This document shows positions 3,966-12,772 of a stretch of 64,000 nt of DNA, in pieces. Source of the DNA: a virus; the IMG/VR virus record IMGVR_UViG_3300032092_000005, positions 62,001 through 126,000 of that record. One strand, given 5' to 3'. Both the position numbers and the translations under genes were made by a program. Positions within the stretch are counted from its first letter, which is position 1. Every line of letters starts with the position of its first letter. The notes below the pieces were generated by a model. The model was not told where the DNA came from and ran no database searches. It saw only the letters and a list, made by a program, of their open reading frames with translations.

Positions 3966-3995
3966 AAAAATGGAACCTTAGGGTTCCATTTTTTT
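3966..3995. terminator. Bidirectional intrinsic terminator between gp32 and the tape measure
   Basis: Stem TGGAACC (3971-3977), loop TTAG, GGTTCCA (3982-3988), with a T-run after it and an A-run before it. It can stop plus-strand transcription leaving gp32 and minus-strand transcription leaving the tape measure gene, whose TAA lies in the T-run at 3994-3996. Confidence 0.88.
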
Positions 3996-6900
3996 ATCTA
4001 TACAAATAATTATATCCAAAAGTAGAAGAGACTGAGCGTTCAGTGCTTCCTATGATAGGATGTGAATACGTATCTCTTACGTTATCACTACCCGAACCGC
4101 CATTAATATTGGTAGATGTTACTGAAGAATTGTCTACGTATGTCGTAGGAGAAAATAGTGTTCCTCCGCCACTAATCGCACTAGTAGAATTTCCACCCGA
4201 GACTGTTCCTCCAGAAACAGGAATTACAGTGATATTATTTGTTCCAGTGCCGCCCATAGCCTTTACTACATTTCGAGATGCTGTATATCCTGTAAGAGAT
4301 GCAGTGCCGAAATTAGTTGATCCTGCAAGTGATGCCGATGAAACTGCTGCACCAGAAACTGGTGCTTTTAGGTCGGCAAGAGAACTTGATAGTGATGCAT
4401 TCTTTGTAGCAGCATCGCCTGGTTTGTCCTGATATTTTTGTGCAGATATCGACTTAGATACACTCTCTTCATACGCAACTGCTTCTTTCGTCAATTTTAC
4501 ATATCTTAAACGATTAGCTTCTGTAGGATTAGCTAGATATGTTGCATATGCCTCGTCTTTAATTTTTCTATATGCATCTTTTTTCTCTTGCAATTTTGTA
4601 TCTTTAGTAACGTCTGTCAACTCTGCGCCTAATCCTGTATCTTTTGCTATTCTATCCAATTCTTCTTTTGCTAATTTTAAGTTTAAAGCAACTTTTTCTT
4701 TGTCTGTATAAAACTTGTTAAAGTAGTCGGTCATGTACTTCTGATAAGCTTCTTTACCACCAAAATCTGTTATAAGTTTATCTGCTTGCTCTGCCCGAAG
4801 AATTGCATCTGTATTATTAGCAAGCTGAACGTTCAATTCATCGCCTTCACCATATGCTACAGTCTTATATACAGCAGCCTGAGCAGCAGTTCCAGGATTG
4901 TAAATATATGGGTTCGTGCCGCCGCCCTTGCCGAAGCCGGAGTATCGAATATTAAGTCCTGGTCGAAGTTGACGGCTTGCTCCCTTGCCGAAGCCCGTGG
5001 TGATATAGTCATCATCGGTGATTGCTCTGCTCGACGGCGCCACAGCGCCCACGGCAGCAGAAACTAATTGCTGATATGTGCCATAAAAATCTGCATTAGT
5101 TACTTTACCAGAAGCGATTCCCTGTGCGCGTAATGCTTCTACATTAAAACCTGTAGGTAGCATACTGTTTGCATAATCTCCTGCAATCGCACCGACACCT
5201 AAACCAAAAGTATCGCCGTATCCCAACATCTTACTAGCAGTGCCTGCAATTGAATAAGATGTTGCTAGGCGATTCATTGCGCCTATAGAATCTTCTCCTT
5301 CTAGTTTAAATCTTTCAAATATTGGAAACACACTCGTCAACATTCCATTATTGAATGTCTTCAGCGTGTCTAACAACATCTGATTTTGTTCTTCTATAGA
5401 CTTTTCAAAAAATTCTAGTTGTATAGATTGCGTAAAATCTTCAAACTTTTGAGATGTTGTTAATCCTAGTATTGTAGTCGCCTTTTTCATGTTAGCGAGA
5501 TTGTCGTCTACATCTTTCATTAATGCTTCTGCTACTTTAGGATCAACACCAAAATTAGTTCTGGTATTTCTATCGCTAGAGTACATACCACCCTTTTCAC
5601 GCATGTTCTTATAGCCCTGCAATGAAGTGCCAGAACCGCCTGCTTCTTTGGATGCTCCAAGAGTGCCTTCAATTCCTATATTTGTAAGGTATGGTGCACT
5701 TCGGCCGAACAAACGATTGACTGCTGCGCCAATAAGACCAGCGCCGATTGGACCTAAAGGCGTCAGGCCACCAATGAAAGTAGCAATATCCGCTACGCCT
5801 TTCATATCACCATCTAATGTGTATCCGCCGGAGAGCGCACCAGATATACTCATAGCGCCCATGCCAGCGCCAACGGCTCCTAAAACTGAACCCGCTTGTA
5901 TAGCAGCATTGCTTCCTGCAAATGCGTCCATCACATTTCCATAAGCACTTAATCCGGGCGACGATAGTCCAAGTCCAATGTCACCGATAACTGTTCCGGA
6001 GGCGCCGCCTATCATATTGCCAAGCCCTATCACACCTCTCTGCAATAATGCTCCTGGAGCTAGTCTAGCAATCGTTTGTTCTAATCCAACACCACCAGAA
6101 GTTATTAGGTTTTTAATTATTGCATTAATACCAGTCTGAGCATAGACACCACTTAGACTATCTGTTTTCACCCCTAAAGCGTTTCCAATAAATTTACCGC
6201 CAAGATTTGATAAGAAGTCTCCACCAGCAGCAGCGCCACCTTTACCTCCTGTTATCATGTTGCCAATTCTACCTAAGAAAGAATCGCCGCCTCCACCACC
6301 ACCCGGAGCACTACTCATAATTCCGCCAGCATCGCGGCTACCCCAGCCAGCAAGATCAGTGCCACTTGCGCCTGAACCAGTAAGAGCACCAAAAATTGTG
6401 CCTAAAATTCCACCACCACTACCACCTGCGCCGCTGCCACTACCGCTAACATTTGCATTAAAGTTTCTACCAGCTTCACCTACACCATAAACAAATTCTT
6501 GTGCAGCAGCAGTAGCGCCTGCAACCTGAATTTGTGCATTTTGAGTTGCTGCATTTTGATTAATAATACCAGCGTTTGTTGCAGAAACTTCTGCGGCTGA
6601 TACTCCAGAAGTCGATCCCATGTTGAACAATGGGGAGAATGGCTTTGATGTAATACCCGCAAGACTCTTAGAAAAGTTATTAATGCCTTGTTCATATCCA
6701 AATGCACTTCTAAGGTCGGTAGAGATGCCCGTCATGCCATATAATAAGTCTGACCAACCCATGCCTTCATTGCCAGAAGCAAAGTTGTTCAGCGAACGAT
6801 TCATTTGATCACTACTCATTCCCAATACAGGAGCTAATACGCTACCAACTAATTGATTACCGTAACTTCCTGCAAGTTGCGTGAATATTGAACCAATTCC

Positions 6901-9900
6901 TCTACCAGCTTCTTTACCGAATATTTGAGTAGCTAAATTATTCATAGGTTCAGCTAAGAATTTATTTGCTATATTTCCACCAGCATTAGTAGTAGCAGCA
7001 GTGCCTGTAACTCCCATAGGAATTGCAGCAGTCAACATATTTCTGTAATTATTTTCTAGGGTTTGTCTAAATTGTTTTTCTAGACCATCACGCTCATTTC
7101 TATACTTCTTATTTTCAGCATCTACCTTTTCACGATAGACTTGCTGAGCCTTCATCTCATCCAGTTGAGCTTGAGATAGAACAGGAGTTTGAATATTAGC
7201 TTTAGTAACTTCATCCTGTATTGCTTTTTGTACAGGATCCATAGCTCCCTGCGCAACAATTACAGGATCATCTTTTCTGCCAGTTGGCGCATCACTTGGA
7301 GAGTTTACATTACTATTACTTTCTTCATTGCCATAATTAAAATAATTGCCGCCTGATGCTTTAGACAATTGTGCAACAATTACAGGATCATCTTTTCTGC
7401 CAGTTGGCGCATCACTTGGAGAGTTTACATTACTATTACGTCTTTCATTGCCATAATTAGAATAATTACCGCCGGCACTGCTTGATGATGCTTTAGAAAG
7501 TTGTGCCAATACACTAGCAGAATTTTTTGCCATTGCAGCACGATTTTCACCAGTCTGATAAGGACTTGCTGGACGTTCTATTTCTGTAGTGAAATACTTA
7601 GTAGCATCTGATAGTGTTGTCGATCTTCTAAATCCTTCACCAAAACCAAATTCACCTTTAGCTTCTCTAATGATCAATGCAATGTTATTATCTGGATTCT
7701 TTAAATATTCTGAACTATATCCTTTTCCAAGTCCACCAGCAGTGTTTATCTGAAATAAACCAAAAGATGCTTCCTTAGAAGATACGTTACCCGCGTTTGG
7801 ATTTAATCTAGATTCTGCATACGCATTAACTACAGCCGCTTGTGCTTGAATATCACTAAATCCTGCACCAATAAATCCTTTATAGATTTTTTCTGCCATC
7901 GCAGTCTGTTGCGGAGTAAGATTTGATAATTGACCCGAATAGTCTGGAGAAACTGGAGAAACTACATAAGGAGTAAGTGATGAAGATGCACCAGATGATG
8001 ATGCTCCAGCAGTATCTACTTTAGGTTTGTTAGCGATAGCTTTATTAGCTAATCTTGTACTTTCATCATAATTATCATTTACTGTAGCTCTTTCTGCATC
8101 AAGTTTACCTTGTGCAGGATTTGCCATAGGAGTGTATGTATCTTTTTGGAATGTTTTTGGTATAAATTCAGTCTTCTGATAGTTTTGACTAAACTTTTGT
8201 GCAACATATTCTTTATATACTTTTTTTGGAGCTTCTGCTTCAGCTTTAGTTTCAGATATAAACTTTTTTATGCTATCAGTCTTTGCAATATCAGGAATAA
8301 ATTTATCTGCTAACTCAGCAACTTTCTTTCTTGTAGAAAGTAACGCGCTATCTATAATATTTCCAATATCAAAGAATAGTTTACCCACAAAATTTTGTAC
8401 AACAGTTATAGTACTACTAACGCTATCGTATATTTTACCTAGAGTTTCGCTGCCTTTTATATAATTACTAATGCCATTAACAAGTTTACCAAAAGCATTA
8501 CTCATATCAACTCCGAGTTGACCGAAATAATTTGATATGTCTACACCCACTTCACCTAAAAAATTTCTAACCCGAATGTCCATTGCCTCATCCAGCATTG
8601 AAGCATGTTTGATATCTTCTTTAGCTGCGGCAAAATCTCCACTCATTACATTTCCTATTGCGCTCCAGTAATCTCCTAAATATGCACCGAGATCGCGGAA
8701 ATATCGAGTAACTGCCGTAGTAGCTCTTTGCTGATATGTGCCCTTTCCTTCATCTTTGGTTTGTTTTACATAATCAGTATTAAATACCCAATCAGAAATT
8801 TGTTGTCCAACATCTATTAGTCCACCAGTAAACGAAGCAACACCTCCACCTATAAATGCGGCTGCCCTATCTTTAATTGTAACTTCTCTTACATTTAAAT
8901 CTTTCTTTATTTGCTTAGTATCGAATGCTGAGAATAAACCTTCTACAGCAAATATTATAAGGTCTAAGAACGGTATTAATTTTCCAAAAGATTTAAGTGC
9001 CTTTGTTAATTGTGGAAATTGAACTGCAAGTCTTTCAAAAATTCCAGCGCCTTCTCCACCCATACCAAAAATATTTTTTATCCAACCAATTATATCATCG
9101 AACGATTTGGTAATATAAACTTTAGCAGACTCTAGCATTGGAGTTACATCTTTAAATATACCCGAAAATATACCAAAAAATGATGTCACCAATTTACCAA
9201 TTGCGCTTTCTTTAACAAATAAAGTGGCGCTATCAACAAGTTCACCAAATGTTTTAAATAAATTTTTGAATGAATTTATCTTCTCATCAAAAAGGCCAGC
9301 TACTTCATCAAACTTAAAGAAGTCTTTTAGTTTAGAAATTTTCTCGTCAAAGAAATCACCTATTGCTTCAAACTTAAAGAAGTCTTTTAGTTTAGAAATT
9401 TTCTCGTCAAAGAAATCACCTATTGCTTCAAACTTAAAGAAGTCTTTTAGTTTAGAAATTTTCTCGTCAAAGAAAGCACCTATTGCTTCAAACTTAAAGA
9501 AGTCTTTTAGTTTAGAAATTTTCTCGTCAAAGAAAGCACCTATTTCATCTACTCTCAGGACCTTTTTAAAATCTTCTATAAATTTGCCAATAGTCTTAGA
9601 TGTTTCTGGAAACAATTCACTAAATGCTGTAAATATCTTTCCAGGCAGTTCTTTGAAGAACAAAAAGATATCGTCTAGTTTAAGTGCTTCCCTTAATTTT
9701 GCAAACTTTTCAGCAAGAAAAGCACCTATTTCTTCTATTCTGAAGAATTTTTTAAAATCATCTACAAATTTTGCAATAGCTTTAGTTGTTTCAGGAAATA
9801 TTGCACTAAAAGATTTAAACAATCTACCAGGCAATTCTGTAAAGAATTTAATTAGGTTCTTAAATCCTTCTATTACATTAACTGGCAGTTCTTTGAAGAA

Positions 9901-10518
9901 TTTAATTAGGTTCTTAAGGCCTGCCATTAAATTGTCTGGCAGTTCTTTGAAGAATTTAATAAGATTTTTAATACCCGTCATTAATAGACCAGGTAATTCT
10001 GTGAAAAATTTAATAAGATATTTAAATGCAGCCAATAAGGATTCTTTAAGTCCTTTAAATATATCACCTAAAGTATCAAAAAATGTTTTTGTTTTCTTAC
10101 CGTCGGCTAATGCGTCTGCTGCTTTTGCGGCGCCAGCACCGGCGGTAGCGGCAGGTAATACTGCATTTAAAAGTTTCTTTAAAGGAGAATCTTCAACTTT
10201 GTCTTTGTTTACATTATTTAAACTAAGCGCAAGCATTCTCTTAAGAGTATTATCAATACTATGCAGAGTTCCCAACATATCGCTAGTAACTTTTTTCTGC
10301 TCATTAGCATTTTCTTCTGCAAACTGTCTATCTTGTTGACGTTGAGCAAAATCTCTTTTTTGCATTGTCACTTGACTAGCCATGACACTTTGAATGCCCT
10401 TCATAGCAAGGCCAAAACCAGCAGGATTAGCAGACATAAAGGCGCCCTTTATGCCTGCTCCAAAGCCTGACATTGATTTTTGTATACTACCAGCGAGTTT
10501 AGATGTTAGATCAGCCAT
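3994..10518 (-). CDS. Giant tail tape measure protein with embedded lytic transglycosylase-like domain
   Basis: 2174 residues, minus strand. Tape measure proteins set tail length and are ejected with the DNA; T4 gp29 has only 590. Order: a coiled, Gln/Lys-rich start; about residues 150-260 with repeats of the type NLIKFFKELP; residues about 330-405 with four near-identical 20-residue repeats (FFDEKISKLKDFFKFEAIG); hydrophobic helices around 500-560; a lysozyme/SLT-like domain about 870-990 (AAVVNAYAESRLNPNAG, Glu902 candidate acid, then SFGLFQINTAGGLG); a 40-residue duplication; then long Gly/Ala-rich hydrophobic regions that may cross the host membrane. It lies directly downstream of the gp26/-1 ORF pair, the universal place for a tape measure. 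AAAGAG precedes the ATG. Identification as tape measure rests on size, helical repeats and context. Confidence 0.85.
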   Translation of the reverse strand: MADLTSKLAGSIQKSMSGFGAGIKGAFMSANPAGFGLAMKGIQSVMASQVTMQKRDFAQRQQDRQFAEENANEQKKVTSDMLGTLHSIDNTLKRMLALSLNNVNKDKVEDSPLKKLLNAVLPAATAGAGAAKAADALADGKKTKTFFDTLGDIFKGLKESLLAAFKYLIKFFTELPGLLMTGIKNLIKFFKELPDNLMAGLKNLIKFFKELPVNVIEGFKNLIKFFTELPGRLFKSFSAIFPETTKAIAKFVDDFKKFFRIEEIGAFLAEKFAKLREALKLDDIFLFFKELPGKIFTAFSELFPETSKTIGKFIEDFKKVLRVDEIGAFFDEKISKLKDFFKFEAIGAFFDEKISKLKDFFKFEAIGDFFDEKISKLKDFFKFEAIGDFFDEKISKLKDFFKFDEVAGLFDEKINSFKNLFKTFGELVDSATLFVKESAIGKLVTSFFGIFSGIFKDVTPMLESAKVYITKSFDDIIGWIKNIFGMGGEGAGIFERLAVQFPQLTKALKSFGKLIPFLDLIIFAVEGLFSAFDTKQIKKDLNVREVTIKDRAAAFIGGGVASFTGGLIDVGQQISDWVFNTDYVKQTKDEGKGTYQQRATTAVTRYFRDLGAYLGDYWSAIGNVMSGDFAAAKEDIKHASMLDEAMDIRVRNFLGEVGVDISNYFGQLGVDMSNAFGKLVNGISNYIKGSETLGKIYDSVSSTITVVQNFVGKLFFDIGNIIDSALLSTRKKVAELADKFIPDIAKTDSIKKFISETKAEAEAPKKVYKEYVAQKFSQNYQKTEFIPKTFQKDTYTPMANPAQGKLDAERATVNDNYDESTRLANKAIANKPKVDTAGASSSGASSSLTPYVVSPVSPDYSGQLSNLTPQQTAMAEKIYKGFIGAGFSDIQAQAAVVNAYAESRLNPNAGNVSSKEASFGLFQINTAGGLGKGYSSEYLKNPDNNIALIIREAKGEFGFGEGFRRSTTLSDATKYFTTEIERPASPYQTGENRAAMAKNSASVLAQLSKASSSSAGGNYSNYGNERRNSNVNSPSDAPTGRKDDPVIVAQLSKASGGNYFNYGNEESNSNVNSPSDAPTGRKDDPVIVAQGAMDPVQKAIQDEVTKANIQTPVLSQAQLDEMKAQQVYREKVDAENKKYRNERDGLEKQFRQTLENNYRNMLTAAIPMGVTGTAATTNAGGNIANKFLAEPMNNLATQIFGKEAGRGIGSIFTQLAGSYGNQLVGSVLAPVLGMSSDQMNRSLNNFASGNEGMGWSDLLYGMTGISTDLRSAFGYEQGINNFSKSLAGITSKPFSPLFNMGSTSGVSAAEVSATNAGIINQNAATQNAQIQVAGATAAAQEFVYGVGEAGRNFNANVSGSGSGAGGSGGGILGTIFGALTGSGASGTDLAGWGSRDAGGIMSSAPGGGGGGDSFLGRIGNMITGGKGGAAAGGDFLSNLGGKFIGNALGVKTDSLSGVYAQTGINAIIKNLITSGGVGLEQTIARLAPGALLQRGVIGLGNMIGGASGTVIGDIGLGLSSPGLSAYGNVMDAFAGSNAAIQAGSVLGAVGAGMGAMSISGALSGGYTLDGDMKGVADIATFIGGLTPLGPIGAGLIGAAVNRLFGRSAPYLTNIGIEGTLGASKEAGGSGTSLQGYKNMREKGGMYSSDRNTRTNFGVDPKVAEALMKDVDDNLANMKKATTILGLTTSQKFEDFTQSIQLEFFEKSIEEQNQMLLDTLKTFNNGMLTSVFPIFERFKLEGEDSIGAMNRLATSYSIAGTASKMLGYGDTFGLGVGAIAGDYANSMLPTGFNVEALRAQGIASGKVTNADFYGTYQQLVSAAVGAVAPSSRAITDDDYITTGFGKGASRQLRPGLNIRYSGFGKGGGTNPYIYNPGTAAQAAVYKTVAYGEGDELNVQLANNTDAILRAEQADKLITDFGGKEAYQKYMTDYFNKFYTDKEKVALNLKLAKEELDRIAKDTGLGAELTDVTKDTKLQEKKDAYRKIKDEAYATYLANPTEANRLRYVKLTKEAVAYEESVSKSISAQKYQDKPGDAATKNASLSSSLADLKAPVSGAAVSSASLAGSTNFGTASLTGYTASRNVVKAMGGTGTNNITVIPVSGGTVSGGNSTSAISGGGTLFSPTTYVDNSSVTSTNINGGSGSDNVRDTYSHPIIGSTERSVSSTFGYNYLYR
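7253..7439 (-). repeat. 120-bp-period duplication inside the tape measure gene
   Basis: Bases 7253-7319 are repeated exactly at 7373-7439 (67 identical bases at a spacing of 120). The spacing keeps frame, giving two copies of a 40-residue Ser/Asn/Gly-rich linker (SNVNSPSDAPTGRKDDPVIV) just after the transglycosylase-like domain. It looks like a recent tandem duplication of a linker. Confidence 0.9.
9311..9550 (-). repeat. Four tandem 60-bp repeats in the tape measure gene
   Basis: The 60-base unit beginning AACTTAAAGAAGTCTTTTAG recurs at 9311, 9371, 9431 and 9491 with only one or two changes, encoding four 20-residue helical repeats FFDEKISKLKDFFKFEAIG. More diverged relatives flank it on both sides. 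Unit length in frame and near-identity point to recent expansion by slippage or unequal recombination. Confidence 0.93.
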
Positions 10519-10539: not shown

Positions 10540-10743
10540 TTATCTTCTAGAAGACCTAGCTTTTTGTTTGTTCTCATTATCTTTTTGTCTATCAGCTTCC
10601 TCTTTGATAAACTGCGCGAGTAATGTGATATATATTTCCCTCTCAAAAGGCATCATTTCTTCCAATTCTGTTAAACTGTATTTATGATGCTGTATCAATG
10701 CAAAGTTTGTCTTATAATGATTAATTAGACTATCATTTGACAA
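10540..10743 (-). CDS. Small -1 frame tail assembly chaperone part (T-like), probably made by frameshift from gp26
   Basis: The ORF encodes 67 residues from a TTG at 10743, with no ATG before residue 30 and no Shine-Dalgarno. It is open in the -1 frame back through the gp26 stop codon to the slippery site at 10752-10758. Its motif ELEEMMPFEREIYITLL resembles the W/F-ERE-IY signature of the T part of phage tail assembly chaperones, and the basic tail KQKARSSRR is typical as well. It sits between gp26 and the tape measure gene, exactly where lambda gpT and P2 E' lie. The product is therefore most likely the C-terminal 70 residues of a 315-residue gp26-T fusion, not a free protein. Independent TTG initiation coupled to the gp26 stop is the alternative. 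Confidence 0.78.
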   Translation of the reverse strand: MSNDSLINHYKTNFALIQHHKYSLTELEEMMPFEREIYITLLAQFIKEEADRQKDNENKQKARSSRR

Positions 10744-10758
10744 ACTTAACCGAAAAAA
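10703..10758 (-). promoter_or_regulatory. Programmed -1 ribosomal frameshift signal (slippery heptamer plus hairpin)
   Basis: On the minus strand gp26 ends AGT TTT TTC GGT TAA. TTTTTTC (10758-10752), read as T TTT TTC, is a canonical X XXY YYZ -1 slippery heptamer. After slipping, reading continues CGG TTA AGT TTG into the 67-residue ORF. Four bases after the heptamer a perfect 9-bp stem begins (10747-10739 with 10711-10703); inside it a second 6-bp stem (10737-10732 with 10721-10716) closes a 10-base loop. Heptamer, short spacer and hairpin all match known recoding sites. Confidence 0.82.
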
Positions 10759-11486
10759 CTTGTCATTCCCTCAAGTTCGATGTGTTCTTTGCATCCACAC
10801 TTAGAACATTTCCAATCAAAATCTTGTTTTAATTTTGGAATGGTTCCAAAGAATTCGGTTAGTTTTGCAAACTGGTCTTGATTTAAGTCATTAATGAATG
10901 TTAAAAGCTCGGCTCTAGAAGATTCTGAAGCTGGATAGACTGCTTCTGCATCAAAGATATAATCAATACTGTTACACACAATATCAACAATAGTATCTAT
11001 TTGTGATTTATCTTTTGAATCATTTGCTTTTGCAGACATTGATACTGTAGGATACTTTAATACAATGCCAATCTTAGACTCTTCATCCAACATAATCTTT
11101 GGACTATGTTTTGGATCTTTAACTACGTCAACATCCATCAAGTTTAATTTCAATGGTGTAGCGTGTGAGCATTCTACGCCCTCAGAGTTAATTCCATTTG
11201 GATGGCGAAGTTGAATATCAATAATTTCTCCAATAGATTTTGCTCTAAGTTTCAAGAAGAAAAACTCTAAATCGAACATAGGCATATCATCTACTTCAAT
11301 ATCATCGATTGAACAGTTGTTGATAATCTGTTTAATTGCTCTAAACATTTCTGTCGGCTCTTCACTTTCAAGTGCCATAAGCAATAGTTTCTGTTCCTTT
11401 ACTAAGAAAGGTCTGTATTTAACGGGTGCGCCGTTTGATGGTAAATTCAATTCAAAAATTGGTGATTTAATTTTAGGTAAAGCCAT
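10746..11486 (-). CDS. gp26: gp26-like baseplate hub / tail assembly chaperone
   Basis: 246 residues (T4 gp26: 208), of the T4 baseplate protein family. The N-terminus has LPSNGAPVKYRPFLVKEQK, the characteristic start of the family; the middle is helical (MALESEEPTEMFRAIKQII); and the C-terminus carries a small zinc-site candidate with Cys227, Cys230, Cys232 and His235, ending EGMTSFFG. T4 gp26 is needed to assemble the central hub. Here it lies immediately before a -1 ORF and the tape measure, the position of tail assembly chaperones in other phages, and its last codons contain a frameshift heptamer. It therefore probably exists in two forms: 246 residues alone and 315 residues fused to the T-like segment. 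Confidence 0.85.
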   Translation of the reverse strand: MALPKIKSPIFELNLPSNGAPVKYRPFLVKEQKLLLMALESEEPTEMFRAIKQIINNCSIDDIEVDDMPMFDLEFFFLKLRAKSIGEIIDIQLRHPNGINSEGVECSHATPLKLNLMDVDVVKDPKHSPKIMLDEESKIGIVLKYPTVSMSAKANDSKDKSQIDTIVDIVCNSIDYIFDAEAVYPASESSRAELLTFINDLNQDQFAKLTEFFGTIPKLKQDFDWKCSKCGCKEHIELEGMTSFFG

Positions 11487-11516: not shown

Positions 11517-12185
11517 TTATACAGTATCAAAGATTGAATTGCTTGACAAATCAGGAAAACTTACTACATGATATCTATATGTCATTGTAACAGTAAATCT
11601 TTGGTACGTATTTTGTTCTTCCCATGATAAATTCATAGGACTCAATGCAATAGGATATGCATTCTGTAGGGTATATTTAGCCAATATTCTATTCGCATCA
11701 TTCAGTTGAAATATTCTCATTGATCCTTGAGCATAATCATCGTAATATCGAATAAGACCTGCGCTACTAGAAGCTTTGCCAGTCAAGTCCGTCGCATAAA
11801 CAATATTATCCATCCAAACTTCAAATATTCTTCTTTCATACATATCTTCTGAAGCGATAATAGTAAATGAGTGGTCTGCATATGTATTTTCGTATCCGAA
11901 TTTTAAATTTGGACCAAATGATGTAGTGTCGTCGGTTGTTGCGATTGTTCTTCCAGGCATTTCTGTAGATTCACATCTACATATAAATTTTGGAAGTACA
12001 TCAGATGATGGATTCAAAGGCATGTTCGAGAACCAATTTTGAAGTGTGCCGCCTCTTCTTGCTGATCCTTTAACTTGATCTCTTTTACCTATACCAAAAA
12101 TTGCAGAAGGCAAATCCATCTCTACAAAGAACATGTTAGGTCTTACGGGTACTACTTGTTGTTTAAATGTTGATATACTAAACAT
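11517..12185 (-). CDS. gp54: gp54-like baseplate tube initiator (tail-tube fold)
   Basis: 222 residues from the ATG at 12185, which overlaps the upstream stop as TAATG; a TTG at 12212 would add nine residues and is less likely. The pattern FICRCESTEMPGRTIATTDD, then an EDMYERRIFEVWMDNIV helix and a closing SWEEQNTYQRFTVTMTYRYH is that of tube-type proteins (gp19/gp48/gp54), which share one beta-barrel fold. T4 gp54 (320 residues) sits on gp48 and starts tube polymerisation; no other gp54 candidate is present and gp48 is encoded nearby on the other strand. The shorter length leaves room for another hub-tube role. Confidence 0.6.
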   Translation of the reverse strand: MFSISTFKQQVVPVRPNMFFVEMDLPSAIFGIGKRDQVKGSARRGGTLQNWFSNMPLNPSSDVLPKFICRCESTEMPGRTIATTDDTTSFGPNLKFGYENTYADHSFTIIASEDMYERRIFEVWMDNIVYATDLTGKASSSAGLIRYYDDYAQGSMRIFQLNDANRILAKYTLQNAYPIALSPMNLSWEEQNTYQRFTVTMTYRYHVVSFPDLSSNSIFDTV

Positions 12186-12772
12186 TAGATTTTCTTTCTG
12201 CTGTCTGCCCAAACTTGTTGAGTAGTTGCTTTCTTAAACTTTTCTATTGGTAAAAATAGTGCTATATCCCATTCGACTGAAGTTATCTCTAAGAATGGTG
12301 ATTTTACATGATTGTATAAGTACTTTTTAATAGTAGGCTTATACTCTTTATATTTAGACGCAGCTTTTAGTAGACTGTAACTAATTTTTATCTTAGTCTT
12401 TTCATCATACTTCTTGTCCGTGACTGTAGAATATATTGCATTCATTAGTTTTGCACGAAGCATTGGTGGTAAATAATGAAAGTTAATACCCAAGAAGCCA
12501 TCTGGATGAAGTTCTACTGGAAATATTAGAGGAAATGTATCGTAATATGGCAATTCCATCTTCAATTTTGGATCATACTTGAATAAATACATCATTCCAG
12601 GTTCTAATTGAGCAACCTTTCTCTTTTGAGCGAAAGAGTTCATTACTTTGGACGTAGTTAATCCAGATAACTGACCAGCAGCATCTCGGTACCAATCTCT
12701 AGCTTCAGAAGTTCTAGCTGGCACTTGACCAGCTTGAATGCCTTGATATATAAGTTCTTTGAAAATTGTCAT
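12185..12772 (-). CDS. Conserved T4-like virion-associated protein, function unassigned
   Basis: 195 residues. I recognise the type from T4-like aquatic phages but not a proven function. Features: an N-terminal GQVPARTSEARDWYRDAAGQ block, MYLFKYDPKLKMELPYYDTF, then FPVELHPDGFLGINFHYLPP, a basic helical segment, and WDIALFLPIEKFKKATTQQV with a basic C-terminus. In T4 the DNA-end protector gene 2 lies beside gene 4, and this gene is the neighbour of gp4 here, so a gp2-like role is conceivable; length (T4 gp2: 274) and lack of a clear motif keep this tentative. No membrane segment. A late-promoter-like CATAAATA lies 23 bases upstream. Confidence 0.65.
   Translation of the reverse strand: MTIFKELIYQGIQAGQVPARTSEARDWYRDAAGQLSGLTTSKVMNSFAQKRKVAQLEPGMMYLFKYDPKLKMELPYYDTFPLIFPVELHPDGFLGINFHYLPPMLRAKLMNAIYSTVTDKKYDEKTKIKISYSLLKAASKYKEYKPTIKKYLYNHVKSPFLEITSVEWDIALFLPIEKFKKATTQQVWADSRKKI

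What the first reader, a model, noticed from the sequence alone, without database searches (positions are those of the whole stretch)
10703..10760. Programmed -1 frameshift joining gp26 to a small ORF upstream of the tape measure
Seen: on the minus strand gp26 ends AGT TTT TTC GGT TAA; T TTT TTC is a textbook -1 slippery heptamer. A nested hairpin follows: a perfect 9-bp outer stem starting four bases after the heptamer, and a 6-bp inner stem. The -1 frame continues for 70 codons (CGG TTA AGT TTG...) with no ATG before residue 30 and no Shine-Dalgarno. Known: phages from lambda (G/GT) to P2 (E/E') make tail assembly chaperones by frameshift just before the tape measure gene. Inference: gp26 of T4-like phages corresponds to the G-type chaperone, and this phage makes a 315-residue fusion as well as the 246-residue form. 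I do not know of a described frameshift in T4-family gp26.
Basis: partly seen in the sequence, partly recalled or inferred. Interest (0 to 1): 0.88.

Follow-up and report, generated by a model that had tools for sequence, protein, structure and literature searches.

The report
Tail chaperone made by ribosomal frameshift
This T4-like virus very probably makes a short and a long form of one tail-building helper protein by letting some ribosomes slip back one base near the gene's end, a trick that its relatives share and that was published for T4-like phages in 2022.

Summary
On the minus strand gp26 (11486-10746) ends AGT TTT TTC GGT TAA. T TTT TTC lies at 10758-10752, and the -1 frame then runs open for 70 codons to 10540. 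A 9-bp stem starts 4 nt after the heptamer.

In 68 gp26 loci less than 80% identical in DNA, 66 carry xxT TTT TTN and 64 of those TTT TTC. Other Phe-Phe pairs in the same genes use T TTT TTC in 4 of 79 cases. The -1 frame encodes the gp51 family (phrog_634) from the slip site on, mostly with no usable start codon. In T4 itself gp26 is the short form, and gp51 is a separate paralogue with the -1 tail fused in one frame; the heptamer has decayed there.

The RNA stem is strong in some cyanophages, modest here, absent in many relatives.

Vladimirov, Gautam and Davidson (Virology 2022) identified the tail assembly chaperones of T4-like phages. I could not read it, but two later papers cite it for split short and fused-long genes and for poly-T slippery sites. 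This is a new member of a known kind.

The parts
10746..11486 (-). gp26-like gene: short tail assembly chaperone (baseplate hub assembly chaperone), zero-frame product, 246 aa
   Evidence: PF12322 E=1.2e-56; phrog_150 E=2.8e-62; profile aligns with T4 gp26 over nearly its whole length, E=2.6e-14, ending at Phe-Phe
10752..10758 (-). slippery heptamer T TTT TTC
   Evidence: present in 66 of 68 representatives as T TTT TTN, 64 as TTC
10746..10748 (-). zero-frame stop codon TAA, one codon after the heptamer
   Evidence: in most relatives the stop starts at the same distance (10 nt from the heptamer start; 7 or 13 in some)
10540..10752 (-). -1 frame extension, 70 codons plus stop, gp51 family; gives a 315-aa fusion
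   Evidence: phrog_634 E=3.8e-27, and phrog_150 positions 235-278 E=1.8e-6; matches T4 gp51 residues 200-244, E=3.2e-5
10703..10747 (-). hairpin after the heptamer: 9-bp outer stem (10747-10739 with 10711-10703) and 6-bp inner stem (10737-10732 with 10721-10716); candidate stimulator
   Evidence: outer stem kept in the three nearest relatives L017-L019 without covariation
3994..10518 (-). 2174-aa ORF directly downstream, probable tape measure protein with a tail lysozyme domain
   Evidence: position, length, in-frame repeats, PF18013 E=2.5e-12; no match to the T4 gp29 family, so the tape measure role is inferred
11517..12212 (-). upstream neighbour, tail tube protein
   Evidence: phrog_45 E=2.3e-38

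Best explanation
One gene makes two tail assembly chaperones. Most ribosomes stop at the gp26 stop codon and make the 246-residue short form. A minority slip back one base on U UUU UUC (tRNA-Phe re-pairs from UUU to UUU in the P site and from UUC to UUU in the A site) and go on for 70 codons, making a 315-residue fusion of gp26 with the gp51 tail. By analogy with lambda gpG/gpGT, many short copies and a few long copies would coat the tape measure protein and recruit tail tube subunits, then leave. Shown here: the site, its extreme conservation, the coding character of the -1 frame right up to the slip site, the lack of independent starts, and a natural one-frame fusion in T4 gp51. Inferred: that the slip really happens in cells, its rate, a stimulating role of the stem in this phage, and the chaperone function.
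For: Heptamer conservation: 66 of 68 loci below 80% DNA identity have xxT TTT TTN, and 64 of 64 TTC-ending junctions use T TTT TTC against 4 of 79 Phe-Phe pairs elsewhere in the same genes (Fisher 2e-36, relatedness not corrected). Where the heptamer varies only the free last base changes: TTTTTTT in pf16, TTTTTTG in P10VF. The -1 frame shows the coding pattern 0.79/0.90/0.60 by codon position directly after the heptamer. 42 of 66 have no ATG in the first 12 codons of the -1 frame, 29 have no ATG/GTG/TTG, 63 have no Shine-Dalgarno-like motif at a start there. T4 gp51 holds the gp26 domain plus the -1 tail in one ORF (phrog_150 13-280, PF12322, phrog_634), T4 gp26 is the short form, and T4 gene 26 codes its Phe-Phe as TTC TTT. 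Only one PF12322 gene was found in this 152-kb virus record. Downstream RNA is more folded than controls: mean z -1.41 against -0.28 in the gene body and +0.08 further downstream. The HK97 tail assembly chaperone 2ob9 is the best PDB fold match by probability (0.63), but with E 1.2.
Against: No expression data exist here. The stem in this window is only marginal against shuffles and shows no covariation. Many relatives lack a comparable stem. The gp26 model has no significant solved-structure match. Ackermannviridae and Vibrio phage K351 keep the small ORF in the -1 frame without the heptamer, so the ORF can be retained by some other means.
Confidence: 0.94

Rival explanations
1. The small ORF is an independent gene (gp51), translated from its own start by coupling to the gp26 stop; the heptamer is only a conserved Phe-Phe.
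For: GenBank records annotate gp51 as a separate CDS in many cyanophages. Some relatives have an ATG in the -1 frame at or near the stop (L098, L099, L102, L103).
Against: Synonymous positions of the heptamer are invariant. This window has no ATG before codon 33 and no Shine-Dalgarno. 29 of 66 relatives have no start codon at all in the first 12 codons. The -1 frame is under protein constraint from the slip site on. T4 carries the fusion as one ORF.
Confidence: 0.03
2. RNA polymerase, not the ribosome, slips on the run of six T, giving a mixed mRNA pool that encodes the fusion.
For: The run of six T is conserved; programmed slippage of polymerases on runs is a known mode of recoding (PMC5009743).
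Against: Six is short for polymerase slippage (own knowledge). The run sits exactly in the X XXY YYZ phase, and stems start 3-9 nt downstream in a subset of relatives, more often than in shuffles.
Confidence: 0.03
3. The heptamer and open -1 frame are chance.
For: The DNA is AT-rich, and T TTT TTC has a chance of about 0.12-0.17 per locus under gp26 codon usage given the amino acids.
Against: 66 of 68 diverged loci share it, and the -1 ORF is a conserved family.
Confidence: 0.001

Closest known systems
Tail assembly chaperones of T4-like phages (gp26/gp51; Vladimirov, Gautam and Davidson, Virology 2022, 566:9-15)
   Same: Same kind of protein pair, short and long forms. By the account in PMC10885494 some T4-like phages carry a short gene and a fused long gene; by PMC12846349 poly-T slippery signals are known in T4-like TAC-N genes.
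   Different: The paper itself was not available to me, so I cannot say which phages or genes it lists. This phage uses the frameshift form, not the two-gene form of T4.
Phage lambda G/GT and the conserved -1 frameshift of dsDNA phage tail genes (Xu, Hendrix and Duda 2004)
   Same: Short chaperone plus rarer -1 fusion, encoded just upstream of the tape measure gene.
   Different: No sequence relation was found or tested; the slip site here is T TTT TTC; no measured efficiency here.
P2 E/E' (tail assembly chaperone, -1 frameshift)
   Same: Contractile-tailed phage, T TTT TTN-type slip site (from memory), position before the tape measure gene.
   Different: Sequence relation was not tested.
TAC locus of Vandenendeviridae and Andersonviridae (phage Adele, PMC12846349)
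   Same: Myoviruses with a conserved poly-T -1 slip site at the end of the short chaperone gene and an unannotated -1 frame.
   Different: Motif GTTTTT there; that chaperone is not shown to be of the gp26 family.

Membership tests
Programmed -1 ribosomal frameshift site | X XXY YYZ heptamer in the zero-frame phase shortly before the stop | tested here: met
   T TTT TTC at 10758-10752
Programmed -1 ribosomal frameshift site | Heptamer conserved across diverged relatives beyond protein constraint | tested here: met
   66 of 68; synonymous sites invariant
Programmed -1 ribosomal frameshift site | -1 frame open and coding from the slip site, no independent start | tested here: met
Programmed -1 ribosomal frameshift site | Downstream stimulatory RNA structure | tested here: inconclusive
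   9-bp stem here, 6% of shuffles reach it; group enrichment 20% against 3.5% for stems of at least 9 bp; one compensatory change in a cyanophage subgroup, not beyond shuffles
Programmed -1 ribosomal frameshift site | Fusion protein or reporter activity detected | not testable with these tools
   needs experiment
T4-like tail assembly chaperone (gp26/gp51) | Short form homologous to T4 gp26 | tested here: met
   PF12322, phrog_150, hhalign E=2.6e-14
T4-like tail assembly chaperone (gp26/gp51) | Long form carries the gp51 C-terminal tail | tested here: met
   phrog_634; T4 gp51 residues 200-244
T4-like tail assembly chaperone (gp26/gp51) | Encoded upstream of the tape measure gene | tested here: inconclusive
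   A 2174-aa ORF with a tail lysozyme domain follows directly, but it has no tape measure family match
T4-like tail assembly chaperone (gp26/gp51) | Fold shared with known tail assembly chaperones | tested here: inconclusive
   HK97 chaperone 2ob9 prob 0.63, TM 0.43 by target length, but E 1.2
Lambda G/GT | Both forms bind the tape measure and recruit tube protein in a fixed ratio | not testable with these tools
   needs experiment

The most novel reading that the evidence does not exclude
T4-like and related myoviruses make the short and long chaperone in at least three ways: -1 slipping on T TTT TTN (this phage and most relatives), gene duplication with a frozen fusion (T4), and an undescribed heptamer-free way in Ackermannviridae and Vibrio phage K351.
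Probability: 0.35. Interest if true: 0.45.

Novelty: new member of a known kind. Interest (0 to 1): 0.3.

Why it matters
It corrects annotation: the 'gp51' of cyanophages and many T4-like phages is very probably not a gene of its own but the tail of a frameshift product, and several cyanophage records inspected (S-PRM1, S-WAM1, ACG-2014j, S-SSM4) do not annotate it at all. It also gives a simple reading of two long-known T4 hub assembly factors, gp26 and gp51, as the short and long chaperone. The wide distribution offers a natural series for measuring how slip rate and stem strength relate to tail length.

Tried and rejected
Chance heptamer: rejected by 66 of 68 conservation. Own start for the small ORF: rejected for this phage, no early ATG or Shine-Dalgarno. 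A conserved stem as a required part of the site: rejected as general, since most relatives outside the cyanophages have no strong stem. Covariation support in the P-SSM2-like stem: one compensatory pair only, and 88 of 500 shuffles reach it. A profile search with the very diverged alignment A1 failed for lack of conserved stretches. A scan for relatives of K351 gp26 found none. No solved structure matches gp26 by sequence. The key paper, Virology 2022 566:9, is not in the library. NCBIfam gave nothing useful.

Full report
What is in the sequence. The minus strand of the window holds a run of tail genes: head closure, DNA end protector, tail tube, gp26, a small ORF, and a 2174-aa ORF with a tail lysozyme domain. 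gp26 (11486-10746) ends AGT TTT TTC GGT TAA. T TTT TTC occupies 10758-10752 in the phase needed for a -1 slip. Reading on in the -1 frame from CGG gives RLSLSNDSLINHYKTNFALIQHHKYSLTELEEMMPFEREIY..., 70 residues, to a stop ending at 10540. A 9-bp stem starts four bases after the heptamer and encloses a 6-bp stem.

Is it more than chance. I gathered gp26 loci from annotated phages and from viral contigs and reduced the set available to 68 that are less than 80% identical in DNA. 66 of them have xxT TTT TTN at the junction, 64 with TTC. The two exceptions are Vi01 and K351. Phe-Phe pairs elsewhere in the same genes use T TTT TTC in 4 of 79 cases, against 64 of 64 TTC-ending junctions. In 57 gap-free aligned representatives all seven bases are invariant, though three are free to change synonymously, while third positions just upstream average 0.53. 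The rows are related, so the Fisher value of 2e-36 is not a true probability, but the loci span Kyanoviridae, Straboviridae (the Vibrio phage ValKK3, Aeromonas phage 65 and Cronobacter phage S13), and phages of Pseudomonas, Delftia, Stenotrophomonas, Rhizobium and Agrobacterium. Where the site varies, only the last base of the heptamer changes (TTTTTTT in pf16, TTTTTTG in P10VF), which is what the X XXY YYZ rule allows.

Is the small ORF an extension or a gene. The -1 frame belongs to the gp51 family (phrog_634, E=3.8e-27). It also matches positions 235-278 of the gp26 family profile phrog_150, directly after position 232 where the zero-frame protein's match ends. Base conservation follows the -1 codon phase directly after the heptamer. 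In this window no ATG occurs before codon 33. Across 66 representatives 42 have no ATG and 29 no start codon of any common kind in the first 12 codons, and 63 have no Shine-Dalgarno-like motif at a start there. Records often annotate gp51 from an ATG a few codons in, or omit it.

T4 as a natural control. T4 gp26 aligns with the window's gp26 family from near the start to the Phe-Phe of the heptamer (E=2.6e-14). T4 gp51, encoded divergently beside it, has a gp26-like domain followed in one ORF by the tail that lies in the -1 frame here. So T4 holds the short and the long form as two paralogues. As expected if the slip is no longer needed, T4 gene 26 spells Phe-Phe as TTC TTT and gp51 has no slippery run at the joint. 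The window's virus record has one PF12322 gene only.

The stem. Downstream RNA is on average more folded than shuffles (z -1.41), while the gene body (-0.28) and a stretch 100 nt further downstream (+0.08) are much less so or not at all. Perfect stems of at least 9 bp starting 2-10 nt after the heptamer occur in 20% of representatives, 3.5% of shuffles and 6.6% of control positions. Some are striking, 19 bp in Sf-CH3 and 14 bp in S-PM2. In this window the stem is matched by 6% of shuffles and is kept in its three nearest relatives without covariation. A stimulating role here is plausible, not shown.

Mechanism. By the lambda model, short gp26 copies and a few gp26-gp51 fusions would hold the tape measure protein and bring tube subunits to it. 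T4 gp26 and gp51 are listed as hub assembly chaperones, gp51 essential and absent from the final particle (PMC3004832). The predicted gp26 fold (mean pLDDT 87.6) has the HK97 tail assembly chaperone as its most probable PDB match, but without a significant E-value. That the slip occurs in cells, and at what rate, is inferred.

What is known. A 2016 review states that the G-T frameshift is conserved in long-tailed phages except T4 (PMC5009743). Sullivan et al. 2010 noted that cyanophage gp51 is only about 20% as long as that of other T4-like phages and matches its C-terminal region (PMC3037559). Vladimirov et al. 2022 then identified the chaperones of T4-like phages; PMC10885494 reports from it that some carry a short gene and a fused long gene, and PMC12846349 that poly-T slippery signals are known in T4-like short chaperone genes. 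I could not open the paper. The finding is therefore sound but not new in kind.

Exceptions. Ackermannviridae and K351 keep a gp51-like ORF in the -1 frame but have no heptamer; the Ackermannviridae junction reads GAR ATT TTC ATY TAA, with an ATG in the -1 frame at the stop in some and ATT in others. How they make the long form, if they do, is open.

Noticed in passing
L105, L109-L126 (Ackermannviridae) and L104 (Vibrio phage K351), gp26 3' end: A gp51-like -1 frame ORF is kept but T TTT TTN is absent; conserved GAR ATT TTC ATY TAA junction in Ackermannviridae, TAATGG overlap in K351.
   Followed up: partly
window 9308-9544 and 9830-10026: In-frame repeats of 60 bp (4 copies, 99% alike) and 54 bp inside the probable tape measure gene, coding repeated DEKISKLKDFFKFEAIG-like units; the near-identity suggests recent expansion and a possible change in tail length.
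   Followed up: no
window 3994-10518: The probable tape measure protein carries a tail lysozyme domain (PF18013, residues 875-1002) and does not match the T4 gp29 family.
   Followed up: no
L009, L012, L014, L015 (S-PRM1, S-WAM1, ACG-2014j, S-SSM4): Public records leave the -1 frame gp51 tail unannotated.
   Followed up: yes
L003, L011 (S-PM2, Sf-CH3): Very strong hairpins (14 and 19 bp) shortly after the heptamer, good candidates for a measured stimulator.
   Followed up: partly
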